This document shows, piece by piece, positions 5,137 to 23,813 of a DNA stretch of 26,272 nt (within the stretch, counting starts at the first letter, position 1; every line of letters starts with the position of its first letter). The position numbers and the translations under genes are program-made. The notes beneath the pieces were generated by a model. That model saw only the letters and a program-made list of their open reading frames with translations. It searched no databases and was not told the DNA's origin. This DNA is from a virus, in the IMG/VR virus record IMGVR_UViG_3300023313_000027, positions 1-26,272 of that record. The stretch is one strand, 5' to 3'.

Positions 5137-5986
5137 TTCCTTTTTTGGATGTGTTTTCTTTTGCTAAAGTGCCGCTTGTTCCTAGAACAATTCCACGATG
5201 AGATTTGGTGCGACCTTTGATGATTTCCGAAAGGCCGACCGCAGTCAAATCCAATTGCGGAAATCTCTCCATCAATTCAATTCTCGTTCCTCTGAATGCC
5301 GTTTTTGATGGGACGTGGAAGAAATCATAGACGTTTTTGTCTGCGCTTGGATTCTTGATTCCTTTCATCGACGACCTTTGTGGTGGAACGTCTGATGTTT
5401 GAACCATCCAATTTTTACAGCAGCGATTTGGGTTTTTGATGATTAAATCAACTTCTGGGTGAGAAATGTCATAGTTGTCGATCAATTCAAACTTGGTTCC
5501 GAAGAAATGTTCTTTGGTTTCGACGTTGTAGAACAAGAAATTGACCTTGCCATATTTTGAAATGTCTCTAAGTCGGCTTTTCAATTTGTGGTTTGGTTTA
5601 GAATTCAATATCGAAAGAGAAACCGCTGCTGCTTGTTTTGCTTTATCGAACAGTCTAGCATTGACATAGCGCGGTTTCCCGTTGCGAAAATCGGTTGACA
5701 TTCTGCGCCACGCGATTGCCATTTTGTGTTCTTCTAAACCGACGCAAAATTCATAGAGCAAGTGATGAGCGACGAAATGTTCTTTTGCCGTTAGCAAGAC
5801 GATGTTTTCTTGTTTGTTTGAGCCGCCCATAGATTTTGGGAGAATGTGATGACATTCATAATAGATGAAGTTTTCGTCCGACGGCTTTAACTTTTTTCTT
5901 GCTTGACTTTTTGCTCTGGTGATGATAGCTTTGTACCACAAGAAATGCTTTGAATTTGTTTTGTGACCTAAAAATAAACGTTCCAT
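5117..5986 (-). CDS. HNH homing endonuclease inserted antisense in the polymerase gene
   Basis: 289 aa, encoded opposite to the polymerase halves it separates. The HNH core reads ECHHILPKSMGGSNKQENIV (catalytic His pair 46-47, Asn 61) followed by LLTAKEHFVAHHLL (His 70, 74, 75). The N-terminal MERLFLGHKTNSKHFLWYKAII is typical of phage HNH endonucleases. The C-terminal part contains two repeats of the type F(F/Y)NV..KEHFFGTKFELIDNY and FFHVPSKTAFRGTRIELMERF, probably DNA-binding modules. ATG 5986 is chosen because a late promoter motif ends 6 nt upstream; frame extension to 6181 would run into the polymerase C-fragment. There is no Shine-Dalgarno. Expected role: self-propagation by cutting uninterrupted gene 43. 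Confidence 0.88.
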   Translation of the reverse strand: MERLFLGHKTNSKHFLWYKAIITRAKSQARKKLKPSDENFIYYECHHILPKSMGGSNKQENIVLLTAKEHFVAHHLLYEFCVGLEEHKMAIAWRRMSTDFRNGKPRYVNARLFDKAKQAAAVSLSILNSKPNHKLKSRLRDISKYGKVNFLFYNVETKEHFFGTKFELIDNYDISHPEVDLIIKNPNRCCKNWMVQTSDVPPQRSSMKGIKNPSADKNVYDFFHVPSKTAFRGTRIELMERFPQLDLTAVGLSEIIKGRTKSHRGIVLGTSGTLAKENTSKKGITSNLV

Positions 5987-5991
5987 ATTGT

Positions 5992-5999
5992 TATTTATG
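5992..5999 (-). promoter_or_regulatory. Late promoter (CATAAATA) for the HNH endonuclease
   Basis: On the minus strand CATAAATA is followed by ACAAT and then the ATG. It resembles the T4 gp55-dependent TATAAATA. Its position implies a leaderless or almost leaderless mRNA. T4 homing endonuclease genes are also often placed under late promoters. Confidence 0.65.
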
Positions 6000-6029
6000 G
6001 TTTTTGAAAATCGATTTCGGGAGAAATAG

Positions 6030-7136
6030 ATGGTGGATAATTTGAATAATTTGAATAATTTGACTGATGACGAACTGCGCGAAAAATATGACGAGTTGGG
6101 GAAGAAAATCGTTGCTCTGGATAATGAGCAATTGGCAAAAAAAACGTTATTAAACAGTTGCTTTGGTGGATTTGGTAACAAATACTTTCAATTCTTTGAC
6201 CCAAATCTAGCAGAATCAATAACTTTATCTGGCCAGCTATCTTTACAGTGGATCACAAGAAAGCTGAATGAGTATTTTTCAAAAATCCTAAAAACACAAG
6301 ATAAATTAGTCATTTATGGCGATACGGATTCCGTCTATCTAGAATTATCGCCGATTGTTGATGCTTGTTGTGATGGTATGACCGAAGAACAGGTCGTCAA
6401 TTTCCTAGATCAATTAGCGAAAGAACAAATCGAGCCGATCATCGACAAAGCATATCAAGAACTCGCTGAATACATGAACGCATACGATCAAAAAATGTCA
6501 ATGAAGCGCGAAGCGATTTCGTCTTGTGGTTTTTGGAGTGGTAAGAAACGCTATGCTCTATTAGTACACGATAACGAAGGCGTTAGATATGCTGAACCGA
6601 AATTGAAAATCATGGGATTGGAAATCGTCAAATCGTCCACACCGGAAGCAGTCCGTGATGATTTGAAGAAGTTGGTCAAAGTCATGTTGACCGATGGCGA
6701 AACTGCAGCACAAAAATTCATTGAGGAAGTGAAAAAGAAGTTTTTTTCGTTGTCCGTTGAAGATATTGCTTCGCCTCGTGGCGTGAACAACTTGGAAAAA
6801 TTTGTTGATTCGTCTGGCAATTACAAGAGCGGGATTCCGATTCATGTGAGAGCAGCACACAACTACAATAAAATGGTGGATCGAACTGGCATTGTTGCCG
6901 AAAAAATCAAATCTGGCGACAAGATCAAATTTGTCAAGCTCAAGACACCAAACCCGTTGTGTCAAAACGTCATTGCTTTTCCGAGCCATTTGGGTTTGCC
7001 GGACGAATTTGGCTTGAAAGATTACGTCGATTATGCTACAATTTACGATCAAGTGTTTTTGTCTCCGGCAAAAGCAATGTTGGATGCGGTGAAATGGGAA
7101 GCAGAGAAACAGATCACGCTGGAAGATTTCTTTTGA
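6030..7136 (+). CDS. 43B: DNA polymerase gp43, C-terminal fragment (motifs B and C, thumb)
   Basis: Second half of the family B polymerase, 368 aa. It starts in the fingers (LTDDELREKYDELGKKIVAL), then motif B KKTLLNSCFGGFGN (38-50), motif C YGDTDSVY with the catalytic Asp pair (~96-103), KKRYALLV (the KxY motif, ~165) and the thumb. The C-terminal DAVKWEAEKQITLEDFF (ends LEDFF) looks like the sliding-clamp binding peptide of T4 gp43 (C-terminus ...LFDMFDF). GGGAGA at 6019-6024 lies 5 nt before ATG 6030, so it has its own good ribosome binding site. A short 9-bp repeat codes for the Asn-Leu rich start. An intact clamp-binding tail and catalytic site suggest the split enzyme is active. Confidence 0.95.
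   Translation: MVDNLNNLNNLTDDELREKYDELGKKIVALDNEQLAKKTLLNSCFGGFGNKYFQFFDPNLAESITLSGQLSLQWITRKLNEYFSKILKTQDKLVIYGDTDSVYLELSPIVDACCDGMTEEQVVNFLDQLAKEQIEPIIDKAYQELAEYMNAYDQKMSMKREAISSCGFWSGKKRYALLVHDNEGVRYAEPKLKIMGLEIVKSSTPEAVRDDLKKLVKVMLTDGETAAQKFIEEVKKKFFSLSVEDIASPRGVNNLEKFVDSSGNYKSGIPIHVRAAHNYNKMVDRTGIVAEKIKSGDKIKFVKLKTPNPLCQNVIAFPSHLGLPDEFGLKDYVDYATIYDQVFLSPAKAMLDAVKWEAEKQITLEDFF
6041..6063 (+). repeat. Short tandem repeat at the start of 43B
   Basis: TTTGAATAA is present at 6041-6049 and 6050-6058, with a partial third copy TTTGA at 6059-6063. It encodes alternating Leu/Asn residues (NLNNLNNL). It marks the edge of the endonuclease insertion and may be a slippage product at the site of past cleavage and repair. 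Confidence 0.6.
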
Positions 7137-7296: not shown

Positions 7297-7680
7297 ATGA
7301 AAATGATCGATATTGTCTTGAATGACATCAAAGAACGGTTTGAACACAACGTGCCATATTTCTATCGGTTGGGTTGCGTCGTCAATTCTGCTCTGGACAT
7401 TCCAGATCATGTTCGCGCGAAATACGAACAGCAAATTGTGTTTGAATTGCGCGACGATTTGGACGAATATGTTGACTATGATTTCAAAAGCAGAACGCTC
7501 ATCGTCAACATGCGGTTTTCCGGTGTTCCTTACACGGTGGCCATTCCGGTGGATAATGTGAAAGCGATTTCTGATGAATTGAACAATGAAATCATCACAT
7601 TTTCGCCGATCACCGAAGAACGCGAACAACCAAAACCGAAGAAGCCGCATTTGCGCGTGGTTTCTAGCGACGATGGCTAA
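7297..7680 (+). CDS. sspB: SspB-like ClpXP adaptor for ssrA-tagged proteins
   Basis: SspB tethers ssrA-tagged polypeptides to ClpXP. 127 aa. The core aligns with E. coli SspB: QQIVFELRDDLDEYVD (~45), then LIVNMRFSGVPYTVAIPVDNV (68-88, E. coli RFNARFGGIPRQVSVPLAAV), then the family's low-complexity acidic/proline linker (ITEEREQPKPKK) and the C-terminal ClpX-binding XB peptide, here HLRVV (118-122; E. coli ALRVVK). So both the tag-binding domain and the ClpX tether seem intact. ATG 7297 has GGAG 7287-7290 upstream. It has its own sigma70 promoter, and a tmRNA gene lies 1 kb downstream. The functional link between them is inferred. An alternative, a generic SspB-fold protein, is less likely given the XB motif. 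Confidence 0.86.
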   Translation: MKMIDIVLNDIKERFEHNVPYFYRLGCVVNSALDIPDHVRAKYEQQIVFELRDDLDEYVDYDFKSRTLIVNMRFSGVPYTVAIPVDNVKAISDELNNEIITFSPITEEREQPKPKKPHLRVVSSDDG

Positions 7681-7683
7681 ATA
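7677..7683 (+). promoter_or_regulatory. Late promoter motif CTAAATA
   Basis: CTAAATA overlaps the stop codon of the sspB-like gene and lies 24 nt before the GTG start at 7708. It resembles the gp55-type late motif seen at five other places in the window. Confidence 0.55.
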
Positions 7684-7707: not shown

Positions 7708-8721
7708 GTGGCAGCATATTGGATTGATAAAAAGGGAAATTTCGTCGAATCAAGAGATAACCATATCATAATGATTATCTCTCATCCAGAACGTTTTGGC
7801 TTCACTAAAAAGAAAGTCGAAGATACATATAACAAATATGGCGAAGTCATTGGTTCGGAAGGCAAAGCACGGCGCGAATTGATTGATGACGTCATTTCAC
7901 GCGGCTTCATTCGCATTCGCCTATATCCTAGAAGTCATTGGTCGATCACGATCGGCAAATTTGATTCGCGTACCAGAAGTTTGGTGACTGAATTTGCGAA
8001 CAAAATTGTCAACAAAAAGATTGATCCGGGTCTGGGTGGCAAAGATGTGTATATGCCAGTGAAGCTCGTAGCAGTTAAATCGAGACAAGAAAACAAAAAA
8101 TACACCATTAAGGATATTGCTGATGGTGTGTTGTTGACGGGGGAGCCAGTGGTTGAAACTTTGAATTTAATGACGTTTGATGAATTTTTGAACGAAAGCT
8201 CGCTATCGAGAGTGTGGCAGCATTTCACCAACAACGAAAAGACGGTCGTTATTTTGACCGCTTTCCGTGATGAAAAGACAAGGGAAGAAAATTTGCGTGG
8301 CAATAAAGCCATTGCTGCTAGTTTGAAGAATGCCGGTTTTGGTTATTTCTTTGTTGAAGGACACTACACCGAAAACAAAGGAACAGAAGATGAAGTGAAG
8401 GTCAAAGAAGAATCGATCTTTGCTATTGCGGAAAAGAACAAGTCAAGAAACTTGATCGAACTAGCACACAAGCTGGCTAATAAATATAATCAAGATTCGA
8501 TTTTCGTGAAAGAAGGTCTTGGCGATAAAAGTCGAGTTTACTTTTACACGAAGAAAGGCACGAAAGACAAGATCGACGGCAAATTGTCGCTTGGCAAAGT
8601 TGGTGAGTTTTACACCAAGCTGAACAACAAAAAACGAGCGAACACGTTTGTCTTTGAAAGTGCTACTACTGGCAGCGGATTTTTCGCTCGCCATAGAAAA
8701 AGTTTGACGGGGATGAAATAG
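7708..8721 (+). CDS. Two-part late protein: N-domain, internal capsid-targeting-like motif, DUF3293-like domain
   Basis: 337 aa. It starts at GTG 7708 with GGGAG at 7697-7701. Residues 1-150 form an unrecognised basic alpha/beta domain (SHPERFGFTKKKVEDTYNKYGE). At residue 155 comes MTFDEFLNESS, a close match to the T4 capsid-targeting peptide with a gp21-type cleavage site (LNE|S). Residues ~172-300 (VVILTAFRDEKTREENLRGN, then AIAASLKNAGFGYF, then EESIFAIAE, then LAHKLANKYNQDSIFV) follow the layout of DUF3293: N..N..L...L...G...EES.....A..LA...Q.A+. The domain's role is unknown. The last 13 bases, including the stop, double as the 5' end of the tmRNA. It lies between sspB and ssrA. Confidence 0.8.
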   Translation: MAAYWIDKKGNFVESRDNHIIMIISHPERFGFTKKKVEDTYNKYGEVIGSEGKARRELIDDVISRGFIRIRLYPRSHWSITIGKFDSRTRSLVTEFANKIVNKKIDPGLGGKDVYMPVKLVAVKSRQENKKYTIKDIADGVLLTGEPVVETLNLMTFDEFLNESSLSRVWQHFTNNEKTVVILTAFRDEKTREENLRGNKAIAASLKNAGFGYFFVEGHYTENKGTEDEVKVKEESIFAIAEKNKSRNLIELAHKLANKYNQDSIFVKEGLGDKSRVYFYTKKGTKDKIDGKLSLGKVGEFYTKLNNKKRANTFVFESATTGSGFFARHRKSLTGMK

Positions 8722-9057
8722 AATCGACGGTGATTCTGAATTCTTGTAAGCACGCAGGTAGGTTGACCACCTTAAACGTTGACACTGTTATAGCTGCAAA
8801 CGATACTGTAGCACTCGCACGCGCCGCGTGATGACCTTCTGGGATTGCTCGCCAATCGGCGATTCTAAGAAGGACAATTAGATTGGCTAAGGGTTTGGCC
8901 TAGTCGAACCAAACCACGAAAACTTAGACTTGAGATATGGGTTTGTATTTGCCGGTTTCGAGACCATATCAATAAACTAGGATAACCGGATAAGCGTGTA
9001 GAAAGCATGTAAGGATGGTTACCGGACTCGGAGGGCGGTACTCCGACATCTCCACCA
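8709..9057 (+). ncRNA. ssrA: Transfer-messenger RNA (tmRNA), tag ANDTVALARAA
   Basis: Rescues stalled ribosomes and adds a degradation tag. The 5' end GGGGATG (8709-8715) pairs fully with CATCTCC (9047-9053), followed by discriminator A and encoded CCA (9055-9057). The acceptor has G3.U70, the alanyl-tRNA synthetase identity pair. GAATCGACGG near the 5' end matches E. coli GGAUUCGACGGG. The resume codon GCA is at 8796. The frame reads ANDTVALARAA and ends with two TGA (8829-8834); upstream TATAGCT resembles the E. coli UAGUC resume signal. Downstream there are pseudoknot-type helices (CCTTCT/AGAAGG around TCGCC-AATC-GGCGA, and GGTTTGG/CCAAACC). The length of 349 nt fits (E. coli 363). Odd points: it overlaps the preceding CDS, and its T-arm loop (GGCGGTA between CGGAG and CTCCG) lacks the usual TTC. 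The order is standard, not permuted. Confidence 0.93.
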
Positions 9058-9135: not shown

Positions 9136-9633
9136 ATGACAGATAAAGAAAAAGCAAAAGAAATTCGAGCATTGCTGAAAAAGAAGTTCGGTCTGACTTC
9201 GCGCGATGTTAGTGTTCGTTCGCGTTCTTCGATTGATCTTGAAATCAAAACGATCAAAGCACTGATGATCAAGAGCAAAATTGAAAAGGAATCGTCGCAG
9301 TTTGAGAGAATTTTCCGCGATCATGCGACCGGCGAAATCCTTGCTGGTGGCAACACTTTTGTTTTTGTGTCTATCGAGTGGAAATTTCGCAAGAAGTTGG
9401 CTTCTGCTGTTGAAGCAGAAATTATGAGAACAACAAAGACTGGTGAATTGGAAAACGGTACAGTTGTTAAGTTGTTTGGTAAAATTGAATTGGCTAAAAC
9501 GAATCGCGGTGAATATGTTGTATCATATAAAAAAGCACACGAGTTTTTGGTTCACGATTTGAAAAGCAACACCAACTCTGTTCTCGGCTTCATCATCAAC
9601 AACGCACCCGAAGTTTTGAAAAAACTTGCTTGA
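9136..9633 (+). CDS. Unknown early protein, copy 1 of a duplicated pair
   Basis: 165 aa. Its N-terminus (KEIRALLKKKFGLTSRDVSVRS) resembles the LPD29-type domain of mobile-element proteins ('IR..LK..FP...FSVRS'), though I would not assign function from this. The central segment HATGEILAGGNTFVFVSIEW is very conserved between the two copies (165 aa each, about 60 percent identical by eye). The C-terminal half has diverged more. GGGAG precedes ATG 9136, and the sequence from that site to about codon 12 is nearly identical to the copy at 10007, so the duplication included the control region. The stop codon lies within the -35 of the next promoter. No membrane segment is seen. Confidence 0.82.
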   Translation: MTDKEKAKEIRALLKKKFGLTSRDVSVRSRSSIDLEIKTIKALMIKSKIEKESSQFERIFRDHATGEILAGGNTFVFVSIEWKFRKKLASAVEAEIMRTTKTGELENGTVVKLFGKIELAKTNRGEYVVSYKKAHEFLVHDLKSNTNSVLGFIINNAPEVLKKLA

Positions 9634-10006: not shown

Positions 10007-10504
10007 ATGACAGACAAAGAAAAAGCAAAAGAAATTCGTGCGCTGCTGAAAAAGGACTTCGGGTTGACAGCTCGTGATGTTAGCGTTCGTTCGACTTCTT
10101 CGATCAATTTGAACATCAAGACCGCGAAAGCTCTTGCTCTAAGGGAAAAGATCAAAAAGGCTGTAGCAAAATTCGAGCGAGTTTTTCGTGATCATGTTAC
10201 CGGAGAAATCCTTGCTGGCGGCAACACTTTTGTTTTTGTGTCGATTGATTGGAGTTTTCACAAGAAGTTGACCGAAGCAATCAAGAAAGAGCTTGATCGC
10301 GTTGTCGGCAGCGGTGAAATGGAAGATGGTACAGTTGTCAAGCTGTTCGGTAAAATCGATTTGTCAAAATATAATGGCGTTTATAGCATCAAGTATCGTA
10401 ACGAACGTAAACTTTTGCGCAACGATGTTTTGCGTTACAACTTGGATGAAATTTTGGAGTTCACCGCAAATAGCGCAACTAGCGTCTTGAAACAGTTTGC
10501 TTGA
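10007..10504 (+). CDS. Unknown early protein, copy 2 of a duplicated pair
   Basis: 165 aa, a paralogue of the gene at 9136 with the same length, same start (MTDKEKAKEIRALLKK), the same conserved core (GEILAGGNTFVFVSI then W) and the same ending pattern (VLK then LA). The region around the start, with GGGAGTGAATTAA before ATG, is copied too. Differences cluster in the middle helix and C-terminus, where copy 2 reads YSIKYRNERKLLRNDV. Function unknown. It is followed by a gene that overlaps its stop (TGATG), which copy 1 lacks. Confidence 0.82.
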   Translation: MTDKEKAKEIRALLKKDFGLTARDVSVRSTSSINLNIKTAKALALREKIKKAVAKFERVFRDHVTGEILAGGNTFVFVSIDWSFHKKLTEAIKKELDRVVGSGEMEDGTVVKLFGKIDLSKYNGVYSIKYRNERKLLRNDVLRYNLDEILEFTANSATSVLKQFA

Positions 10505-11123: not shown

Positions 11124-11331
11124 AGTTTTGATCATCGACGGATGATCAAAGTGGCTGGCTGAATAAGCTCTCTGCAGAAGGAGCTAAAGCACTTGCTACA
11201 GGTTGTGCTGACACGATGCCGAAATCGGTGAGTGGTTCTTCGACAGAAGATAGCAAGGTTTCGCGGAAAAATGTATTTAAGGCATTCTGCTCCGTGATTG
11301 TGGGTAAAACCGAATCCCACGCCACACATAA
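11124..11331 (+). other. Structured untranslated spacer between tRNA-fMet and tRNA-Thr
   Basis: Starts with a 10-bp hairpin, TTTGATCATC/GATGATCAAA with a GACG loop (11127-11150), without T-tract. Then GTGGC (11151-11155) can close with GCCAC (11321-11325) around further stems: AGCTC/GAGCT (11166-11185), AGCAC/GTGCT (11188-11209) and GTGGG/CCCAC (11300-11320). This is an ordered set of nested helices, so an unknown structured RNA or processing element is possible. One plus frame stays open across it but lacks a usable start. I do not recognise the element. Confidence 0.45.
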
Positions 11332-16175: not shown

Positions 16176-16181
16176 TAAATA
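16174..16181 (+). promoter_or_regulatory. Late promoter motif AATAAATA
   Basis: Begins 2 bases before the TAA stop of gene 41 ends, 25 nt before ATG 16207. It marks the switch from replication genes to the late block. Confidence 0.6.
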
Positions 16182-16206: not shown

Positions 16207-17076
16207 ATGTTATCTTTTCGTGAATATCTATTGAAAGAAGGTGGCAACGCTATCAACGACGTTGTTCGCATCAACCAAGAAAACGTCGATGCTACAATGA
16301 ACAAAATCTATTCGACTGTAGTTAAGGCGCTTGGATTGAAGCGAGAAGATACAGCGTTGCTTGGTTCCACTGGCAAAAAGAATCCACATTCATCGTCTGG
16401 TGATATTGATTTGGCCGTTTCGATCACGTCGTTGATGGCAGCAAACAAATCGCTGAAAACGGTGAACGATGTGATTGAATTTGTTGCTCGGAAAGCGAAA
16501 ACTGTTGTCGATGATGTTTTGATTTTGCGTGGTACTGGTATCGTGACAATGGGATTCCCGATTGTCAACGCTGACGGAAAACAACCCGACCAAAAGGTTC
16601 AGCTAGACTTGATGCTTACCGACAATTTAGAATTTTCGTCTTGGATGTATTTCTCGCCACACGAGAAGGATTCTCCTTGGAAAGGTTTGTATCGCAACGC
16701 GATCCTATCCGCTATCACGCACTATGCTGACCGTCAAGGAAATGACGAAGAATGGTCTAGGTATTTGCTACACTTCCAGAACGGTTTGTCTCGTGTGATG
16801 ATGAGCAGAAAAGGCAAACGCGGATTGTTGAAGAACGCCAAAGTCGTTGATCGGAAGGTTCCGATGAAAGACCCAGATAAAATTGTGGCGATTCTATTGG
16901 GACCATCATTCAAAGCAAAACAAATTCTGACTTATGAAAACGTGTTCAATGCTTTTATGAGTCCAAAATTTGTGTGGGCAAAATATCGAAAGGAAATTGC
17001 CAAGCGCGCTGCTGATGATATTTTGCGCAAAGGCTATCCTGTTCCCCAAGATTTAGCGGATGTGGCTGGAATATGA
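16207..17076 (+). CDS. Pol-beta-type nucleotidyltransferase with capsid-targeting-like leader
   Basis: 289 aa. The leader MLSFREYLLKEGG resembles the T4 capsid-targeting sequence (MKTYQEFIAEA) with a gp21-like site LKE|G. The catalytic core has LLGSTGKKNPHSSSGDIDLAV (51-71: GS followed by D66 and D68) and the third Asp in VQLDLML (D134), the pattern of the DNA polymerase beta superfamily. The C-terminal half is helical, with SPWKGLYRNAILSAITHYAD and PMKDPDKIVAILLG. Substrate is unknown: it could modify tRNA, nucleotides or protein. ATG 16207 with AGAGGA just upstream is preferred over TTG 16183. The stop overlaps the next gene (ATGA). Confidence 0.85.
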   Translation: MLSFREYLLKEGGNAINDVVRINQENVDATMNKIYSTVVKALGLKREDTALLGSTGKKNPHSSSGDIDLAVSITSLMAANKSLKTVNDVIEFVARKAKTVVDDVLILRGTGIVTMGFPIVNADGKQPDQKVQLDLMLTDNLEFSSWMYFSPHEKDSPWKGLYRNAILSAITHYADRQGNDEEWSRYLLHFQNGLSRVMMSRKGKRGLLKNAKVVDRKVPMKDPDKIVAILLGPSFKAKQILTYENVFNAFMSPKFVWAKYRKEIAKRAADDILRKGYPVPQDLADVAGI

Positions 17077-18191
17077 TTTCGTTCCGTGAATATGTAAACC
17101 GCTTTCAAACAATCACCGAATTGGCGCATTTCACTGACCTAATGAACCAGAAGGGCAACAATTTTATTGATGAATTGCTGAACCGGACAATCACCGTCAA
17201 TTTGAAAATCGATCAATCCGCTTTCGTTGTCGGAAATGTCAACGGCGAAATTAAGTATTATGGCCGCGAAGGCAGAACCGAGATCACCAAGCATCGTCGC
17301 AAGGGCATGGATTTATACGAAGAACCAATCCGTCATTTGGAAAGCCGCGACTTGAGTAAAATCCCGTCCGGTGTTTTTGTCTATTTGGAATTTTTCGATG
17401 ATCGGCTGCCAACATTGGTCAAGTATATGACTAAGCCAAAAAACAATCTCATTATTTCATATCTGAAAAAAGACGGCAAAATTCTATCTCCAGCGCACTC
17501 ACTAAACGAAACGATTGCTAGATTGCTTGATGTTTCGCCGCCCCCCGTGTTGTTTCATGGTAAATTGTCCGCAAAGCAGAAAGAGTTGATTCTCGACTAT
17601 GCTAACACACCAAGCGATGAATTGACAAAGAAATATGGCGGAAAAAACTTTGTCCAATACGTCTTGTCTCTATTCGTACCATCACAAAAGATGAAATATC
17701 TAATGACTGACAACTTGGAAGGCATGGTGTTCTATTTTGACGATGGCAATAAAATTGACATGGCGAAAATCAACGACCCATCTTTTACCGAAGGCATCAT
17801 CGATAAAGGAAACAAAGACGATCAGTATAACCGCTTGATGATGGAAGTCATTTATGACAATTTGGAAGATTATGCTAATCGTGTCAAAGCTAGCAATTAT
17901 GACGATTTGATTTATCAACTGACCAAGCTATATATCAAGCATCCGAAAATCAAAAAGCTAGACAAATATCATTCGCAAGTGACAGCAAACCGCTTTTCTC
18001 GCTTGACGTTTTCGTTGCTGCCCTCAAAGGTTGAAAAATTGGTCAATTCAACGTGGTATGCCGAGGACGTATATCGCATTCTTCATTTCCTGCTGGAAAA
18101 ACCAAAACGGCGAGCAAATCCTAGAAATGGATTGACGCGCGAACGGAAAGAAATGGTGAATCGCGTGGTTGACAAACTGAAAGGAATCTGA
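17073..18191 (+). CDS. DNA/RNA ligase-like covalent nucleotidyltransferase with capsid-targeting-like leader
   Basis: 372 aa. It begins MISFREYVNRFQTITE, a leader of the same style as its neighbours. Then superfamily motifs: motif I KIDQSA (K45, D47; classical KxDG has Gly where Gln48 stands), RRKGMDLYEEPIRHLE, motif III-like GVFVYLEFFDD, motif IV LEGMVFYF (E216), motif V-like MAKIND. This is the layout of ATP-dependent ligases and capping enzymes, in a form I know from T4-like phages as unannotated large proteins. Activity (sealing DNA or RNA, or adenylating something else) cannot be told. The C-terminal 100 residues are helical and basic. Confidence 0.78.
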   Translation: MISFREYVNRFQTITELAHFTDLMNQKGNNFIDELLNRTITVNLKIDQSAFVVGNVNGEIKYYGREGRTEITKHRRKGMDLYEEPIRHLESRDLSKIPSGVFVYLEFFDDRLPTLVKYMTKPKNNLIISYLKKDGKILSPAHSLNETIARLLDVSPPPVLFHGKLSAKQKELILDYANTPSDELTKKYGGKNFVQYVLSLFVPSQKMKYLMTDNLEGMVFYFDDGNKIDMAKINDPSFTEGIIDKGNKDDQYNRLMMEVIYDNLEDYANRVKASNYDDLIYQLTKLYIKHPKIKKLDKYHSQVTANRFSRLTFSLLPSKVEKLVNSTWYAEDVYRILHFLLEKPKRRANPRNGLTRERKEMVNRVVDKLKGI

Positions 18192-18197
18192 TAGCAT
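18169..18197 (+). promoter_or_regulatory. Sigma70 promoter giving a leaderless methyltransferase mRNA
   Basis: TTGACA (18169-18174), 17-bp spacer, TAGCAT (18192-18197), inside the end of the ligase-like gene. ATG 18204 follows the -10 by 6 nt, where transcription would be expected to start. Confidence 0.7.
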
Positions 18198-18203
18198 TCG
18201 TCG

Positions 18204-19100
18204 ATGAATCTCAAACCTGTAAATGAGCATCTAGATACAGTCACAATCGAGGACATTGAAAACCACAAACTGCTATCCGACAACGAATTGCTAGACGATC
18301 TGGAACGATTGATCGAATACGACGCATCAACAAATCGGAATTGCTTTTATGGCAATCCTTTTCTTTACCATTTCCAACTTAAAAACTTGATGCGTTGTCG
18401 CAGAAATAAAGCAAAAACCATCTATGAATTAAATGCCGCCGATTGGAATGTTCTCATCGAACAAACCCGCAAACGCAATCGTGGTGGAAAAACTGCTGCT
18501 GGAAATGTGTTCGAGTGTTTTCGCGCGAATTATGGTTCGGTTGTCATGTTCAAAGCAACCACCGCCAAATACATCTATCAAAAATACGGCGCGAAAAAGG
18601 TGCTAGACCCTACCGCTGGCTGGGGTGGAAGAATGCTTGGCGCATGGGCGCTTGGTATCGATTATACGGGGATCGACACTAATACGCAATTGATCGATGC
18701 TTATTATGGGATGCTGTTCTATCTAAATGACTATCCGCAACTATTCAAACCAAAACTGGAAATGATTTGGGATTCGTGTCTGAACGTCGATTTTTCTGAC
18801 ATTGACTATGATTTCGTGCTGACCAGCCCACCATATATCAATCTCGAATTATACGAGAATATGACGCCATTTGAAAGTGAACAAAGTTTCTATGTTGATT
18901 TTCTCATTCCCCTATGGAAGAAGTGTTGTGACAACATAACCGCTGGCGGAAAAGTTTGTTTCAACATATCGCCGAAAATGTATGAAGCCGCTAAATATCA
19001 TGGATTGCCTGATTGCGATTTCGACGAAGATTTGAAACAGCAGCTAGGTCAACAAAAGAACAAGAAAAAACAAGACAAAATCTATATCTGGGCGTGTTGA
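18204..19100 (+). CDS. DNA methyltransferase (TSPPY class)
   Basis: 298 aa. AdoMet-binding motif I DPTAGWGGRMLGA (135-147), then GIDTNTQLID, then catalytic motif IV TSPPYINLE (207-215), then YVDFLIPLWKKC and GGKVCFNISP (motif VI-VIII region). TSPPY is seen in N4-cytosine and some N6-adenine methyltransferases, so the modified base is uncertain. The N-terminal ~100 residues (helical, basic RKRNRGGKTAAG) may recognise the target. No Shine-Dalgarno is seen and ATG 18204 is 6 nt from the -10 of its promoter. A possible nuclease gene starts one base after the stop. Confidence 0.9.
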   Translation: MNLKPVNEHLDTVTIEDIENHKLLSDNELLDDLERLIEYDASTNRNCFYGNPFLYHFQLKNLMRCRRNKAKTIYELNAADWNVLIEQTRKRNRGGKTAAGNVFECFRANYGSVVMFKATTAKYIYQKYGAKKVLDPTAGWGGRMLGAWALGIDYTGIDTNTQLIDAYYGMLFYLNDYPQLFKPKLEMIWDSCLNVDFSDIDYDFVLTSPPYINLELYENMTPFESEQSFYVDFLIPLWKKCCDNITAGGKVCFNISPKMYEAAKYHGLPDCDFDEDLKQQLGQQKNKKKQDKIYIWAC

Positions 19101-19101
19101 A

Positions 19102-20223
19102 TTGGCAACTTACAATAATGTACCGCTGACGCTGACTGACGTTAAAAAGCTAAAGTTTGACGATGCTGCTGCTAATGACATCATCGCCTTTTTGTTTTCT
19201 AATTTCAAAAAGACGTTTGGTGTTGATTGGAAAGAAGCTGCGCCCATAGCAGCACAAAAAGTTAAAGCAAATAGCGTCAAAATTCGCTATGCTTATGATC
19301 TGACCAAACTTCAATCGCTATTGAAAAAACAGTTTCCCGAATATGACGTAACAAAAGCGTCAAAATCTGTTTCGGTGAAGAAAGGTCGCACCGTCGTTTT
19401 GAAATTTGAACACGGCGAAGGTTCGCGCAACAAAAAAGCCGGTGGTGGTAAAGCTGGCTTGAAGTTTGAACAAGATTTGGCTCAAGATTTACAAGCATAT
19501 CCTGATAACACCATAGTCAAAAAGCACAAGAAAATCGTTGACGAGATTTATTCGATTTTGAAATCCGAATATCAATTGGACTTGATGATAGATGATTATG
19601 ATGTGATAATTGAAGGTGACAAAAACAAAAAGCGAAGGCCGTCTTGGGACGAAGAAGAAGGCGTTAGGTTTAATCCATCGGGCGACATTGGCCACATCGT
19701 TACTGACGTTACAGTGAAAACGAAGAACAAGCAGGCATTTCTTTCGCTGAAATACACCAGCCAATTTTACATGATAAATGCTTCTGTTGCTCCATATCTC
19801 CATTTCAATCGACCGGACGTTGATGTGCCAGAACGAAACAAAATCTTGCGCTATTTTGGTTTCAATCCAAAAGATTTTTGTGCTGGCTATGAAATGGTTA
19901 GTGACGACAACGCACAAGAACCAGATTCCAAAATCAAATCAAATTGGGCGAAGATTTTGAAAGAGGTCATCGGTAACGGCTATATCTATGTTGTTGGTGG
20001 TGGCACGCATGATATTGTCATTAACACAAAGACGACGCCAATCATTTCCATCGCGTCGATCAATGACAGAGTTTATGCTATTCCAAACAAACGCAAGTAT
20101 TCAAAAATTGGCCTAACCGCAAAAATCGACGGTCGAACCTACAATCTCGATTGTCAATTTCGGGGAACAACCGCGACCGACGTATATCCGAAGTATTTGC
20201 GAGTGTTGGTTAAAACTAAATGA
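19102..20223 (+). CDS. Unknown protein, possible PD-(D/E)XK-type nuclease beside the methyltransferase
   Basis: 373 aa, starting at TTG 19102, one base after the methyltransferase stop. The central part contains GDIGHIVTDVTVKTKNKQ followed by AFLSLKYTSQFYMINASV, where D...(x)LSLK could be the Asp and Lys of a PD-(D/E)XK fold. YNLDCQFRGT is near the C-terminus. The N-terminus is helical (LTLTDVKKLKFDDAAANDI), with a Gly/Lys-rich linker around residue 110. The catalytic assignment is a guess from a short motif; a structural protein is the alternative. Adjacent to a DNA methyltransferase, it raises the question of a restriction-modification pair. Confidence 0.72.
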   Translation: MATYNNVPLTLTDVKKLKFDDAAANDIIAFLFSNFKKTFGVDWKEAAPIAAQKVKANSVKIRYAYDLTKLQSLLKKQFPEYDVTKASKSVSVKKGRTVVLKFEHGEGSRNKKAGGGKAGLKFEQDLAQDLQAYPDNTIVKKHKKIVDEIYSILKSEYQLDLMIDDYDVIIEGDKNKKRRPSWDEEEGVRFNPSGDIGHIVTDVTVKTKNKQAFLSLKYTSQFYMINASVAPYLHFNRPDVDVPERNKILRYFGFNPKDFCAGYEMVSDDNAQEPDSKIKSNWAKILKEVIGNGYIYVVGGGTHDIVINTKTTPIISIASINDRVYAIPNKRKYSKIGLTAKIDGRTYNLDCQFRGTTATDVYPKYLRVLVKTK

Positions 20224-20226
20224 TTG

Positions 20227-20233
20227 CTAAATA
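20227..20233 (+). promoter_or_regulatory. Late promoter motif CTAAATA
   Basis: Ends 7 nt before ATG 20241, so the mRNA for the kinase-like gene would be leaderless or nearly so. Confidence 0.6.
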
Positions 20234-20240
20234 ATTCACT

Positions 20241-21626
20241 ATGAACGAATCGCTTTTTTCCGAATTTCAACTGCTACTCAAAAAGCACAAAATCAAGCCA
20301 GAAGTTTTGGCTCAAGTCAAGAAGTTTAATGCTAAATGGGATTCGATGCCCGGAATGCGCACCCAACGCTTGCTTGACGTTCAGTTGAAGAAATTAGCGA
20401 AAAAATATGAATCGGATTTTGGTGGCGATGCTTATCGAATCATTAAAGGAATGTTCGACCAGCTTAATGCCAAAGCGAACAAACACAACTACGCCAAACC
20501 AGACACATCTTGGGGAACACACAAAATGAGATTTGCCGAATGGGTGGAAGAACAAGATCGCCTTGACGAACGCTTGATCGTTCTCAATAACAGCAAAAAG
20601 TATAATAATATCATTATTTTGGCCGGTGGCGCTGGCTCGGGCAAAGGCTTCGCGCTTTCAAATTTCATTGACGCTTCTGGCTATAAGGTGCGCGACGTTG
20701 ACGAAATCAAGCGATTGGTTCAGCGCATTTCTGAATTGGGCAAGATCGACGCCCGAAAGATTTGGACAAAAGAAGCACAAGCAAAGTTTGACAGCAAAAC
20801 AGCGAAAACTGTATCGAAAGTTCTAGCACAAAATAACTATCGCCTAGATCATTTGATTCTCAAAGAACCCGATCACGTTCTAACGCTACACATCATCACT
20901 GATTTGATTGGTTGGAAGAAGAAATCGCTGACTCTATTGAGCAAAACGATTCCGACCAATTCTGACCACAAACCGAACATCGTCTTTGACATGACGGCGA
21001 AAGATCGCAAATCGATTGAGAAAACTGTTCAAACAATGCTTGACATTGGTTACGAATCTGCTAACATTCACTTGGTTTGGGTGTTGACAGACTATCAGAT
21101 TGCTATTCAACAGAACGCCCAGCGCAAGCGTGTTGTTCCTGCTGATATTCTGCTACAGACACACAAAGGCGCAGCAAACACAATGGTTGATTTGATTGGT
21201 GGTACTGTTCCTCGTGGCATTGATGGCGATATTTGGGTTATTCTCAACAACAAGGAAAACACGCTATATTGGAAGCGCGGCGATGGTTCGTTGAAAGGAA
21301 CACCAGAGTTTCACGAAGATTCCAGCAATCAAAAAATTGTTGCTAAAGTTGATCAAGATAAGTATGATCGCATTTATGGTAAAGGCGCTTTCGCCAAACG
21401 TAACAAGCGCACTGGTGGTGACTTTGAAAAAGAGAAAGCAGTCATCAAATCGTTTGCTCGAATTAGGGTGAAGAAAGCAGGCAAAACAATTGGACAAGAC
21501 GTGTTGCCATTCAAGACACAACTGTTCAATTGGGTCATTAAAAACGTCCCAGCCAACGCCGTCCATGCTATCCGACGTTCGTTTGGAATCATTCTCGGCA
21601 AAGATCACGGCGCGAAATTGAAATAA
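20241..21626 (+). CDS. Zeta-toxin-like P-loop kinase with internal capsid-targeting-like motif
   Basis: 461 aa. Residues 1-95 form a helical domain. At Met96 follows MRFAEWVEEQDRLDERLIVLN, similar to the leaders of neighbouring proteins. The kinase domain starts NNIIILAGGAGSGKGFALS (Walker A GGAGSGKG 129-136), then GYKVRDVDEIKRL (zeta-toxin-like D..D pair after strand 2) and NIVFDMTAKDRKSIEKTVQTML, then HLVWVLTDYQIAIQQNAQRKRVVP (lid-like). Zeta-type kinases phosphorylate UDP-N-acetylglucosamine or nucleotides, but the substrate here is unknown. It has late promoter motif CTAAATA 7 nt before ATG and no Shine-Dalgarno. An in-frame ATG at 20526 with GGGGA at 20512-20516 could give a shorter product starting with the leader. 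Confidence 0.82.
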   Translation: MNESLFSEFQLLLKKHKIKPEVLAQVKKFNAKWDSMPGMRTQRLLDVQLKKLAKKYESDFGGDAYRIIKGMFDQLNAKANKHNYAKPDTSWGTHKMRFAEWVEEQDRLDERLIVLNNSKKYNNIIILAGGAGSGKGFALSNFIDASGYKVRDVDEIKRLVQRISELGKIDARKIWTKEAQAKFDSKTAKTVSKVLAQNNYRLDHLILKEPDHVLTLHIITDLIGWKKKSLTLLSKTIPTNSDHKPNIVFDMTAKDRKSIEKTVQTMLDIGYESANIHLVWVLTDYQIAIQQNAQRKRVVPADILLQTHKGAANTMVDLIGGTVPRGIDGDIWVILNNKENTLYWKRGDGSLKGTPEFHEDSSNQKIVAKVDQDKYDRIYGKGAFAKRNKRTGGDFEKEKAVIKSFARIRVKKAGKTIGQDVLPFKTQLFNWVIKNVPANAVHAIRRSFGIILGKDHGAKLK

Positions 21627-21641
21627 AGAGGAAAGACAGTT

Positions 21642-22028
21642 ATGGCATCGTTTGAAACAATTAAAAAAGTCATCTATGGAAAGAATGTGATCGTTGATAG
21701 AAACACCAAGCTCAAGTTTGAGAACATCAAGCTCAACACAAGGAAATTGTACATCAAACTTGAAACGGTTGTTTTTTATCACATCGAAAAGCTCGGAATT
21801 GACGTAGAAGAATATGACGTAGAGCCAAGAAATTCGGTTGACGCAAAGGGACGAGACGAAAAAGTCGTTTATCTTGTCCATGTCACCATCAAAAAAGCAG
21901 ACGACAAAGCATACAAAAAGACAATCTCCATCTTGACGAAAAAGTTTGGTGGCGAATTGATGAAATCTATGTCTGGCGCGCATTCTGGCAATAATGGCAA
22001 ATACGACGTTTATGTTATCGTAAAATGA
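21642..22028 (+). CDS. Unknown basic protein, 128 aa
   Basis: ATG 21642 is preceded by AGAGGAAAG. The product is basic, with alternating beta strands (KLYIKLETVVFYHIEKLGIDVEEYDV and VVYLVHVTIKKAD) and a central EPRNSVDAKGRDEKVV region; no membrane segment. No family is recognised. It stops within the start of the next gene (ATGA overlap), so it is part of the late block. Its size and position fit a virion or cargo-associated protein, but it lacks the leader seen in its neighbours. Confidence 0.75.
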   Translation: MASFETIKKVIYGKNVIVDRNTKLKFENIKLNTRKLYIKLETVVFYHIEKLGIDVEEYDVEPRNSVDAKGRDEKVVYLVHVTIKKADDKAYKKTISILTKKFGGELMKSMSGAHSGNNGKYDVYVIVK

Positions 22029-22477
22029 TTTCGTTTAAGCAATTCCTAGATGAATCCGCCGCCGCTCAAGCGAAACTTGCTCAACTAAGAGCAAAGAAGC
22101 AACCCAAGCAGCGCACCCTGATCACCAAGCAGCAACTTGGCGCATTAGAACGTCATCTTGACCAATTGTTCAGGGATTTAGGAATTGATATTGAGTTCAC
22201 CAAACACTTTTTTGAACGTTTGCGTGACGCCAGAAACAAGAAAGACATCACCATCGAAGAATTGAATGATATTTTTACCAAAGCACACAATCGCTATGGT
22301 TCGTTGTTGAAAGGAAAGCCGGAAGATTGGCAGGCTGTTCTGAAATCGATCTCGACAAAGATCAACATTCCATTTGTCATCAAGATTGAAAAGAATGGAA
22401 TGATTGCTCTTGTTTCAAAAACCGTGATGCGCAAGCAAAACTTTCAAACGCCAAATCAAGAGTTGAAGGTTAGTTAA
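22025..22477 (+). CDS. Late protein with capsid-targeting-like leader MISFKQFLDE
   Basis: 150 aa. MISFKQFLDESAAAQAK is a very close match to the T4 internal-protein leader; LDE|S fits the gp21 protease site. Then a coiled/basic helix and HFFERLRDARNKKDITIEEL (~62), KAHNRYGSLLKGKPEDW, then IALVSKTVMRKQNFQTPN at the end. The second half recalls a small domain in many T4-like phage proteins, with pattern 'HF.ER..D.RN.K.I...EL...F..A...YG', which to me is of unknown function. Candidate injected internal protein. It shares ATGA overlap with the previous gene. Confidence 0.8.
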   Translation: MISFKQFLDESAAAQAKLAQLRAKKQPKQRTLITKQQLGALERHLDQLFRDLGIDIEFTKHFFERLRDARNKKDITIEELNDIFTKAHNRYGSLLKGKPEDWQAVLKSISTKINIPFVIKIEKNGMIALVSKTVMRKQNFQTPNQELKVS

Positions 22478-22478
22478 A

Positions 22479-23093
22479 ATGGATTTGGATTATATGGAAA
22501 GTTTTGCTGACTGGTATAATAACAATGGTGGCGATGATTTGTCACTATCTGCTATTGAGGAAACATGGTCGCCAGAATCAGTACCGAATAAGCGAACAAA
22601 TAAAGTCGAGTTGTTTCTCGGCAGACTTCAACCCGTTCATTTGGGTCACGTTAAAATCATCAAGAAGATGAAAAACCCGATTGTGGTTTTGGTCAAAGGA
22701 GCAAAAAGCTCACAAGACAAGAATCGGAACCCATTGAGCGCAGAAGAACAGAGAAAGCTGTTGAAAAAGGCTGTTCCTCGTGTTAAAGTTGTTGTCGCCA
22801 AAGCTGGCTATTTGCCAGAAATCATCGCCGATTTGAGAGAAGCCGGCTACGAAGTTGAAACCGTATATGCTGGTTCTGATCGAATTTCCAGCTATAAGCG
22901 CCAAGTCGATTCTGCTAACAAAAAATTGCTTGACAAACAAAAATTTGATGTTACATTTAGGGAGACGGAACGATTTGCTTCTGCTACGGAAGTTCGCAAC
23001 GCGATTCGTTCCGATGACAAAGACGAGTTTCAAAAATTGATGCCAAAAGAGTTGTGGTCGGAGTTTGATCACTTAAAGGAGCTAATGAAATGA
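22479..23093 (+). CDS. NMNAT/PPAT-like nucleotidyl (adenylyl) transferase
   Basis: 204 aa. The Rossmann HxGH nucleotidyltransferase signature reads LFLGRLQPVHLGHVKIIK (45-62; HLGH 54-57). LVKGAKSSQDKNRNPLSAEEQ follows, like the KxxxxS/NPxxxxER region of NMN adenylyltransferases, and the distal ATP-binding motif is ASATEVRNAI (the [SIT][ST]xTxxR motif). NadM-type substrate (NMN) is plausible, consistent with known phage NAD salvage genes, but PPAT or CTP-type transferases are not excluded. The N-terminal MESFADWYNNN (Met at 22494) resembles the leader of its neighbours in relaxed form. The stop overlaps the next gene. Confidence 0.85.
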   Translation: MDLDYMESFADWYNNNGGDDLSLSAIEETWSPESVPNKRTNKVELFLGRLQPVHLGHVKIIKKMKNPIVVLVKGAKSSQDKNRNPLSAEEQRKLLKKAVPRVKVVVAKAGYLPEIIADLREAGYEVETVYAGSDRISSYKRQVDSANKKLLDKQKFDVTFRETERFASATEVRNAIRSDDKDEFQKLMPKELWSEFDHLKELMK

Positions 23094-23350
23094 AGGTGCT
23101 ACACTTCACCAGCAGCGGAACGATTAAGGTCAAGTGGCTGCCGATCAAGGGTTTTGCTACACCAAAAACGAACACGACGAAAATTGAAAGCGGCGACGTT
23201 TTGAAAGTTGTCAAAGAAACACCAACTGAATTGACGCTCAAGACACGGTTGGGGATTCAGTTTGTCGTCAACAAATCCGAGTTGAAGAAAGTGCGATATA
23301 TTTCGGAAAATCGTTATCTCGACACCATTAAACGGGTGTTGAACGACTAA
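23090..23350 (+). CDS. Unknown small basic protein, 86 aa
   Basis: AAGGAG at 23076-23081 precedes ATG 23090, which overlaps the adenylyltransferase stop. The fold looks like a small beta barrel (GTIKVKWLPIKGF, then GDVLKVVKETPTELTLKTRLG, then IQFVVNKSELKKVRYI), similar in strand pattern to SH3- or OB-like modules. No catalytic motif or membrane segment. Unknown function. Confidence 0.75.
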   Translation: MKVLHFTSSGTIKVKWLPIKGFATPKTNTTKIESGDVLKVVKETPTELTLKTRLGIQFVVNKSELKKVRYISENRYLDTIKRVLND

Positions 23351-23351
23351 G

Positions 23352-23813
23352 ATGCCCAATTCATACATTCAAAAATTGGCCAAATCGGGAAAAGGCACGC
23401 TTCGAGATTTAGAGAAGAAGTGGAAGAAAGCGGTCGAGATCGCCAAAAGCGATGGCGAAGCAGATAACTATGCCTACATCACCGGAATTTTCAAAAAAAT
23501 GATAAAGGAAAAGAAAACAATGAAAACTTATGCTGAATTTATCAACGAAAGCGCATCTGGCAAGCGAGTATTGATTCGCTCACTTAAACGCCAGCTATCT
23601 AGCGATTGGTCATTCGGTGGCGTAAATACGCTTGTTGCTATGGCCGATGAAGATAAAGCATCAATCGAAGATGCTGTAAAAGCACTTGAGACCATTTCGG
23701 GCGTCGGTAAGTTTGAGAAAGCTAAACTTGCTGGTGGCATGAAGGCCAGTTATGACGGCGGCATCATTTCCGTTGTTGTATCTGGTGGCAAAGTTAGAAT
23801 CGAATACGCATAA
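23352..23813 (+). CDS. Small N-domain followed by internal capsid-targeting peptide MKTYAEFINE
   Basis: 153 aa. Residues 1-56 (MPNSYIQKLAKSGKGTLRDL, then EKKWKKAVEIAK and YAYITGIFKKMI) form a short helical domain common at the start of phage proteins ('KLAK.GKG....EKKW.KA...A...G...YAY.TGI'). At residue 57 MKTYAEFINESASGKR is almost identical to the T4 IPIII leader (MKTYQEFIAEA). A small alpha/beta domain follows (DKASIEDAVKALETISG, GGKVRIEYA). ATG 23520 has AAAGGA upstream, so the leader may also start a shorter protein of 97 aa. A bidirectional terminator follows 2 nt after the stop. Confidence 0.82.
   Translation: MPNSYIQKLAKSGKGTLRDLEKKWKKAVEIAKSDGEADNYAYITGIFKKMIKEKKTMKTYAEFINESASGKRVLIRSLKRQLSSDWSFGGVNTLVAMADEDKASIEDAVKALETISGVGKFEKAKLAGGMKASYDGGIISVVVSGGKVRIEYA

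What the first reader, a model, noticed from the sequence alone, without database searches (positions are those of the whole stretch)
16207..23813. Set of enzymes with T4 capsid-targeting-like leaders: candidate injected effectors
Leaders: MLSFREYLLKE (nucleotidyltransferase), MISFREYV (ligase-like), MISFKQFLDE (22025), MESFADWYN (adenylyltransferase, Met 22494), MKTYAEFINE (23520), MRFAEWVEE (kinase) and MTFDEFLNE (8170). T4 internal proteins and Alt carry MKTYQEFIAE-like peptides that direct them into the prohead and are cut by gp21 after (L/I)xE. Several of these genes follow late promoter motifs. The cargo would include nucleotide-transfer enzymes, kinase-like and ligase-like proteins that act at once after DNA entry.
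Basis: partly seen in the sequence, partly recalled or inferred. Interest (0 to 1): 0.86.

Follow-up and report, generated by a model that had tools for sequence, protein, structure and literature searches.

The report
Capsid-targeting tags on packaged phage enzymes
This uncultured relative of phage T4 puts the short address tag that T4 uses to load helper proteins into its head onto a whole set of enzymes, including an S-adenosylmethionine-destroying one, and related enzymes with the same kind of tag have already been found in purified virus particles of marine phages, so they probably enter the host together with the viral DNA.

Summary
All seven peptides are at the stated coordinates, on the coding strand. 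They exceed chance (7 observed, 0.27 expected; 0 of 5000 shuffles reach 7). They match the T4 capsid-targeting sequence (CTS) at the positions T4 IPIII mutants define: aromatics at 4 and 7, hydrophobic 8, Glu 10. The same regex run on T4 returns ipI, ipII, ipIII and 61.1 at gene starts.

Corrections: three of seven are not N-terminal. The kinase tag is internal (the relative G001 has no Met there), the S-adenosylmethionine (SAM) lyase tag is internal, and 23520 is ambiguous. Met22494 is not conserved. T4 Alt has no such leader. 'Ligase' is unproven.

A composition-matched permuted pattern gives 16 collection hits, none at an ORF start; the leader gives 120+ stretches, 104 sites at ORF starts, 47 unrelated cargoes, with unselected Glu10 in 32 of 47. 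Leaderless homologues begin right after the tag (NTase LLKE|GGNA versus Phosso M-GGNA). Published virion proteomes contain tagged relatives: S-CREM2 SAM lyase, cytidylyltransferase, kinase, Cas9-like protein; S-SCSM1 NMN adenylyltransferase. Two relatives encode the T4-type protease.

Verdict: a real CTS system carrying enzymes. Packaging very likely, cleavage likely, injected effector function plausible but unshown.

The parts
7676..7683 (+). GCTAAATA late-promoter-like motif upstream of the SAM-lyase gene
   Evidence: same motif upstream of portal and gp23 in relative G001
7708..8721 (+). SAM-lyase gene with an extra ~154-residue N-terminal domain and an internal tag
   Evidence: Pfam S-AdoMet_lyase 1e-10; G001 copy A aligns over nearly the full length
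8170..8196 (+). internal tag MTFDEFLNE, followed by the conserved SSLSR
8170..8718 (+). SAM-lyase-like domain, T3 SAMase / Svi3-3 family
   Evidence: Pfam 2.9e-11; model's best PDB matches 6znb and 6zm9; Gly64, Glu80, Gln108 invariant
16176..16181 (+). TAAATA (in ATAATAAATA) upstream of the nucleotidyltransferase gene
16207..17076 (+). nucleotidyltransferase with N-terminal leader MLSFREYLLKE; homology to Phosso starts at the next residue
17073..18191 (+). protein of unproven function (reader: ligase-like) with leader MISFREYV; possible site ITE at residues 14-16
   Evidence: no Pfam or PHROG match
20226..20233 (+). GCTAAATA late-promoter-like motif upstream of the kinase gene
20241..21626 (+). 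zeta-toxin-like P-loop kinase with a ~95-residue N-terminal extension and an internal tag
   Evidence: Pfam Zeta_toxin 6.5e-07; phrog_5268 5e-51; G001 orthologue 60%
20526..20552 (+). internal tag MRFAEWVEE; N-terminal in Klebsiella/Enterobacter phage homologues (MKSFKDF) and in L013, L015
22025..22477 (+). 150-residue protein of unknown function with leader MISFKQFLDE|S; G001 orthologue MLNFKDFLIE|R
22479..23093 (+). cytidylyl/adenylyltransferase with a ~34-residue leader-plus-spacer extension (MDLDYMESFADW...AIEE)
   Evidence: Pfam CTP_transf_like 9.8e-08; leaderless X1 homologue starts at the residue equivalent to 35 of the 22494 reading
23352..23813 (+). small protein with tag MKTYAEFINE|S, internal in the window ORF, N-terminal in G001
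   Evidence: leader matches the start of phrog_2667 'internal head protein' at E 0.02
23520..23549 (+). tag MKTYAEFINE, nearest to T4 ipII/ipIII MKTYQEFIAE

Best explanation
The peptides are T4-type capsid-targeting sequences used by a distant T4-superfamily phage to load enzymes into the prohead core. Proposed steps: (1) the cargo is made late from GCTAAATA/TAAATA promoters [inferred from motifs]; (2) the aromatic 4/7 face of the tag binds the prohead core, as shown for T4 IPIII [inferred by homology]; (3) the S77 prohead protease cuts after (L/I/V)xE, freeing the mature enzyme [inferred; the protease gene is present in two relatives]; (4) mature enzymes stay in the head [shown for related tagged enzymes in S-CREM2 and S-SCSM1 by published proteomics]; (5) they are ejected with the DNA and act before phage transcription [inferred]. 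Most readable cargo: a SAM lyase, which would destroy SAM on entry and so blunt SAM-dependent restriction. The others (nucleotidyltransferase, cytidylyl/adenylyltransferase, zeta-type kinase) would act on nucleotides, NAD or phosphate groups, with targets unknown. In the kinase and the SAM lyase the tag sits between an extra N-terminal domain and the enzyme, so it may work internally and cleavage may split the protein.
For: Chance and control: 7 vs 0.27 expected; T4 positive control. Fit to IPIII determinants 4, 7 (targeting) and 8, 10 (processing) (PMC9026906). A permuted pattern gives 16 stretches, none at an ORF start. TAAATA within 40 nt upstream in 20/47 deduplicated vs 168/1044 controls (P 3e-5). 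64 of 101 loci carry a T4-core gene. Tag as add-on: NTase homology to Phosso begins at GGNA right after LLKE, where Phosso reads M-GGNA; X1 cytidylyltransferase lacks the first 34 residues; kinases in L013, L015 and Klebsiella/Enterobacter phages start at the tag. Virion data: S-CREM2 MS-detected ORF6 SAM hydrolase MKDFDSFLEE, ORF14 kinase VKRFDAFLTE, ORF154 MKNFSSFLTE, ORF12 Cas9-like LRFASFMAE, ORF136 MQTFSMFFSE (PMC10665884). A PSSM trained without S-CREM2 ranks 154 and 6 first of 219, and 5 of its top 7 are MS-detected (P 0.009). S-SCSM1 virion NMNAT is MKSFLQFLKE (PMC9602691). Head genes: G001 and AG-345-L05 have S77 protease; G001 has leader ORF MISFSEYITE between portal and protease, where T4 has 67/68.
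Against: No virion data exist for this phage or any close relative, and the window lacks the head genes. Three of seven tags are internal or undecided, which has no direct T4 precedent that I tested. Two (17073, 22479) lack Glu10. In S-CREM2 many MS-detected non-structural proteins have no tag, two high scorers (16, 30) were not detected, and the overall rank test is modest (AUC 0.62, P 0.025). Virion MS can include carry-over, as the S-SCSM1 authors say themselves. Packaging does not prove ejection or activity.
Confidence: 0.8

Rival explanations
1. The tagged proteins are packaged, but as residual prohead-core components rather than injected effectors. The tag recruits them during assembly and they do nothing specific in the new host.
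For: G001 has a tagged 79-residue protein in the prohead-core gene position. In T4, gp67/gp68/gp22 core proteins are cut and mostly expelled (PMC9026906). Injection was not shown here.
Against: Most readable cargoes are enzymes with intact family signatures (SAM lyase, cytidylyltransferase, kinase), and relatives are recovered from mature virions. T4 Ip1-3, with the same tag, are injected restriction inhibitors (PMC12373910).
Confidence: 0.12
2. The motif is another short linear motif shared by late T4-like proteins, for example for the sliding clamp or a chaperone, not for the capsid.
For: The aromatic-rich FxEF core resembles short binding peptides in general, and some tags are internal.
Against: Location at the extreme N-terminus in most cargoes, the unselected Glu10 followed by Ala/Ser that fits the prohead-protease site, agreement with T4 ip genes, and virion detection of tagged relatives.
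Confidence: 0.05
3. Only the strictly N-terminal tags (16207, 17073, 22025 and near-terminal 22479) work. The internal ones at 8170 and 20526 are relics left after a new N-terminal domain was added, and those proteins are ordinary late intracellular enzymes.
For: T4 targeting peptides are N-terminal. The extra N-terminal domains are aligned in the G001 orthologues, and no Met precedes the motif there.
Against: The internal motif itself is kept in both phages at ~44-60% protein identity, including aromatics, hydrophobic position and Glu (MRFAEWVEE / IESFTNWIDE; MTFDEFLNE / IDDYSDFLEE). S-CREM2 ORF12 has its tag near residue 17 and is in the virion.
Confidence: 0.25
4. Chance resemblance in an A/T-rich, Phe/Glu-rich proteome.
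For: The pattern is short; T4 shows two internal false positives in 169 kb.
Against: 0 of 5000 shuffles reach 7; the permuted-pattern control is empty at ORF starts.
Confidence: 0.01

Closest known systems
T4 internal proteins IPI, IPII, IPIII and their capsid-targeting sequence (CTS)
   Same: Same ~10-residue tag (aromatic 4, aromatic 7, hydrophobic 8, Glu 10), late-promoter-like motifs, gene-start position in most cargoes, unrelated mature sequences behind one shared tag
   Different: Cargo here is larger and mostly enzymes rather than small basic inhibitors; two or three tags are internal; mature parts share no homology found here with T4 Ips
Virion-associated enzymes of T4-like cyanophages (S-CREM2 SAM hydrolase, cytidylyltransferase, APH kinase, Cas9-like; S-SCSM1 NMNAT)
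   Same: Homologous SAM lyase and cytidylyltransferase cargo with recognisable tags; in S-SCSM1 a block of virion proteins lies between gp41 and gp61, as do the window's tagged genes other than 8170
   Different: Different phage lineage; the S-CREM2 paper's main text contains none of 'targeting', 'N-terminal' or 'leader'; the window adds an NTase, a zeta-type kinase and internal tags
Phage SAM lyases (T3 SAMase, Svi3-3)
   Same: Pfam S-AdoMet_lyase, predicted ferredoxin-like fold with best PDB matches to Svi3-3, conserved Gly/Tyr/Glu/Gln positions
   Different: Carries a capsid tag and, in the window, an extra N-terminal domain; T3 SAMase is made after entry (own knowledge)
T4 Alt
   Same: Capsid-borne, injected enzyme (ADP-ribosyltransferase) cut by gp21 (PMC9026906)
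   Different: Leader is MELITELFDE, not of this type

Membership tests
T4-type capsid-targeting sequence (CTS) | Aromatics at positions 4 and 7 (targeting determinants in IPIII) | tested here: met
   All seven peptides have F/Y and F/Y/W three residues apart; determinants from PMC9026906
T4-type capsid-targeting sequence (CTS) | Hydrophobic residue 8 and Glu 10, i.e. an (L/I)xE site at the tag end | tested here: inconclusive
   Met for 8170, 20526, 22025, 23520; shifted by one in 16207; only later ITE/IEE sites in 17073 and 22479
T4-type capsid-targeting sequence (CTS) | N-terminal position | tested here: inconclusive
   Met for 16207, 17073, 22025 and nearly for 22479; not met for 20526 and 8170; undecided for 23520
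T4-type capsid-targeting sequence (CTS) | Same tag on unrelated proteins | tested here: met
   47 unrelated cargo clusters in IMG/VR; Glu10 in 32 of 47 against 5.9% background
T4-type capsid-targeting sequence (CTS) | Phage encodes a T4-type (S77) prohead protease | tested here: met
   In relatives G001 (E 7e-39) and AG-345-L05 (E 3e-36); not testable in the window fragment itself
T4-type capsid-targeting sequence (CTS) | Tagged proteins are found in virions | tested here: met
   For homologues and analogues only: S-CREM2 ORFs 6, 12, 14, 136, 154 and S-SCSM1 ORF91; not for this phage
T4-type capsid-targeting sequence (CTS) | Tag removed by the protease; mature protein injected | not testable with these tools
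   Needs N-terminal peptides of virion proteins and an entry assay
T4 internal proteins Ip1-3 (GmrSD inhibitors) | Homologous mature sequence | tested here: not met
   No Pfam or PHROG match of any mature part to Ip families; only the leader resembles phrog_2667
Phage SAM lyase (PF23780) | Family profile match | tested here: met
   2.9e-11, 43.9 bits against a cut-off of 28; 13 of 13 family members match
Phage SAM lyase (PF23780) | Residues equivalent to Svi3-3 Gly56, Tyr58, Glu69, Gln104 | tested here: met
   Gly64, Glu80, Gln108 invariant; Tyr66 in the window, Trp in some relatives; roles from PMC7877911. Equivalence assigned by eye from spacing
Phage SAM lyase (PF23780) | Fold | tested here: met
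   Low-confidence model (pLDDT 55, pTM 0.57), but best PDB matches are SAM lyases 6znb and 6zm9, E 4e-4, prob 1.00
Phage SAM lyase (PF23780) | SAM-cleaving activity | not testable with these tools
   Needs a biochemical assay
Polynucleotide ligase / covalent nucleotidyltransferase (17073) | Motif I KxDG and the ligase fold | tested here: inconclusive
   KIDQ only, seen by eye; no Pfam or PHROG match; model pLDDT 36

The most novel reading that the evidence does not exclude
The T4-type tag is a general, partly position-independent cargo code of the T4 superfamily. Many phages carry a pre-loaded set of enzymes in the head, with a packaged SAM lyase as a widespread first-minute counter-defence, and the tag can also work as an internal protease-cut linker that delivers an N-terminal domain and an enzyme from one gene.
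Probability: 0.4. Interest if true: 0.85.

Novelty: new variant of a known kind. Interest (0 to 1): 0.72.

Why it matters
T4 itself is known for a few tagged proteins, and published cyanophage virion proteomes list enzymes in the particle without saying why they are there. A ten-residue rule that links the two makes virion cargo predictable from sequence across environmental T4-like phages. It also points to testable early functions: SAM destruction on entry, nucleotide transfer and kinase activity before any phage gene is expressed.

Tried and rejected
Relatives of the NTase, the 17073 protein and the SAM lyase in IMG/VR by the patterned peptide search gave none, so NTase/17073 comparisons rest on INPHARED records. 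Pairwise BLAST of the window NTase, 17073 and 19102 proteins with the X1/Ps15 block is not significant except for the cytidylyltransferase, so I do not claim that the four-gene block is conserved. A single-sequence model of 17073 is unusable. phmmer of the SAM-lyase domain against PDB sequences gave only spurious hits and the family profile reached T3 SAM lyase only at E 0.067, so I relied on Pfam, fold and residues. The strict window regex fails on S-CREM2 (position 6 is S/A/M there); the relaxed pattern was written after seeing those N-termini, so the fair test is the PSSM trained without S-CREM2. I considered and dropped Alt as precedent for the leader. PADLOC matched only the untagged methyltransferase plus weak hits.
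Full report
What was checked. The window is a 26,272-base virus record with T4-type replication genes: split gp43, UvsX, gp41 and gp61 (gp41 finds 2645 phage records, best in marine T4-like phages). A six-frame regex finds exactly seven leader-like peptides, all on the coding strand. Expectation is 0.26-0.27, and 0 of 5000 residue shuffles reach seven. As a positive control the same regex, run on T4, finds ipI, ipII, ipIII and 61.1 at gene starts and two internal false hits in 169 kb. Alt is not matched; it starts MELITELFDE.

A related 95-kb contig (G001, IMGVR 3300003873_000004) gives orthologues for most genes. The kinase motif is internal in both phages and has no Met in G001 (KKIESFTNWIDE). 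The SAM-lyase motif is internal in the window and in G001 copy A. Met22494 is Phe in G001. The 23520 tag is N-terminal in G001 (TTG start) but lies in a longer ORF in the window. So three tags are N-terminal, one is near-terminal, two are internal and one is undecided.

Is it a capsid-targeting sequence? In T4 IPIII the first ten residues suffice; residues 4 and 7 direct targeting, 8 and 10 direct processing, and gp21 cuts after L/I-x-E (PMC9026906). The window peptides keep the two aromatics and, in most, the hydrophobic-x-Glu end. For an unselected test I scanned 2.9 million viral contigs for DNA encoding MK[ST]FKEF. 104 sites start ORFs of at least 40 residues, in 47 clusters without shared mature sequence. 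Glu10, which was not part of the pattern, is present in 32 of 47 against a background of 5.9%, followed by Ala or Ser in 13 of 32. A permuted pattern of the same composition gives 16 stretches and none at an ORF start of that length. TAAATA, the late-promoter core, lies within 40 nt upstream in 20 of 47 deduplicated cases against 168 of 1044 control ORFs. 64 of 101 loci also carry a T4-core gene in the stretch held. Cargo families include ADP-ribosyltransferases, a poly(A)-polymerase-type NTase, a methyltransferase, a zinc-protease match and DUF3008.

The tag is an add-on. The window NTase aligns with the Sinorhizobium phage Phosso protein from its residue 12, GGNA, directly after MLSFREYLLKE; Phosso reads M-GGNA (E 6e-13). 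Cutting after LKE would restore the N-terminus of the free-standing homologue. The Xanthomonas phage X1 cytidylyltransferase lacks the first 34 residues of the window protein as read from 22494. Kinase homologues in Klebsiella/Enterobacter phages and in L013 and L015 begin at the tag. In G001 the slot right after gp41, where the window has the NTase, holds a different tagged protein with an HELSHW motif, which looks like cargo exchange.

Link to the head. G001 and AG-345-L05 encode the S77 prohead protease. In G001 a 79-residue ORF MISFSEYITE|GSVKD lies between portal and protease, where T4 has genes 67 and 68. The G001 promoter motif GCTAAATA precedes portal, gp23 and the tagged gene at 79065; in the window it precedes the SAM-lyase and kinase genes.

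Virion data. The published S-CREM2 virion proteome lists 52 of 219 ORFs (PMC10665884). Its non-structural members include the SAM hydrolase (MKDFDSFLEE...ESSLSRL), the cytidylyltransferase (MKNFSSFLTE), an APH-like kinase (VKRFDAFLTE), a Cas9-like protein (tag near residue 17, LRFASFMAE) and small proteins MKDLHSFLTE, MNFSEFNE and MQTFSMFFSE. A matrix trained only on window, T4, G001, AG-345-L05 and Klebsiella-phage tags ranks ORF154 and ORF6 first and second of 219. Five of the top seven are MS-detected (hypergeometric P 0.009) and none of these is a structural protein, but over all non-structural proteins the separation is modest (AUC 0.62, P 0.025). In S-SCSM1 the virion NMN adenylyltransferase starts MKSFLQFLKE|A and sits in a block of virion proteins between gp41 and gp61, the interval that holds six of the window's seven tags (PMC9602691). 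S-SM1 virions also contain a cytidylyltransferase (PMC3037559), whose N-terminus I did not read.

The SAM lyase. The domain after the 8170 tag matches Pfam S-AdoMet_lyase (2.9e-11), as do 12 of 12 relatives. Gly64, Glu80 and Gln108 are invariant and correspond by spacing to Svi3-3 Gly56, Glu69 and Gln104. A weak AlphaFold model finds Svi3-3 structures 6znb and 6zm9 as its best PDB matches. Seventeen of the 83 tagged sites first listed belong to this family by sequence, so a tagged SAM lyase is common in environmental T4-like phages. T3 SAMase is a known counter to restriction (PMC7877911); a packaged one would act from the first moment. That is an inference.

How it most likely works, and limits. 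Late synthesis, core binding by the aromatic face, cleavage by the S77 protease and ejection with DNA follow the T4 precedent, where Ip1-3 are injected inhibitors of GmrSD restriction enzymes (PMC12373910). Shown here: tag statistics, add-on nature, protease in relatives, and virion presence of tagged relatives (published). Not shown: virion presence, cutting or injection for this phage, and function of the internal tags. The nucleotidyltransferase call rests on similarity to phage proteins and a GSxGK...DID motif seen by eye; the 17073 protein remains unassigned.

Novelty. The CTS is known, and reviewers have suggested that T4-like phages use it to load various proteins. New here are the enzyme set, the internal tags, the connection to cyanophage virion enzymes (the S-CREM2 paper's text does not mention leaders or targeting) and the packaged SAM-lyase family. 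Only open-licence papers could be searched, so earlier reports may exist.

Noticed in passing
window 8709-9057 (+): Phage-encoded tmRNA (Rfam RF00023, 109 bits, full length) directly after the SAM-lyase gene; its tag reads ANDTVALARAA before TGATGA. ARAGORN did not report it.
   Followed up: partly
window 11129-11330 (+): manA RNA motif (RF01745, 90 bits) between tRNA-Met and tRNA-Thr.
   Followed up: no
window 5117-6181 (-): HNH-type homing endonuclease-like ORF on the opposite strand between the two parts of gp43 (DNA polymerase); assigned by eye.
   Followed up: no
window 9136-9633 and 10007-10504 (+): Two paralogous 165-residue proteins (MTDKEKAKEIRALLKK...) near the tmRNA.
   Followed up: no
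G001 69826-70452 and 71304-72398 (IMGVR 3300003873_000004): The relative has two SAM-lyase copies, one with the extra N-terminal domain and internal tag, one short with a reduced leader MKSFNE|SSLSR next to what looks like a tRNA 3' end.
   Followed up: partly
G001 79065 (+): Tagged protein with an HELSHW metalloprotease-like motif in the slot after gp41 where the window has the NTase.
   Followed up: no
L007 2481-4714 (Campylobacter phage CC_R7): Cluster of adjacent genes with leader-like starts (NTFKEYLYE, MKFIDYL, MTFKEFILE) around a SAM-lyase-like gene.
   Followed up: no
T4 61.1 (L008 18966-19130, -): T4 gp61.1 starts MKTFKEFIKE|D, a full tag by this rule, on a 54-residue hypothetical protein.
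   Followed up: no
LR756500 265966-266469 and 267175-267900 (-): In a jumbo phage record, homologues of the window cytidylyltransferase and the 17073 protein are close neighbours on one strand, hinting at a functional pair.
   Followed up: no
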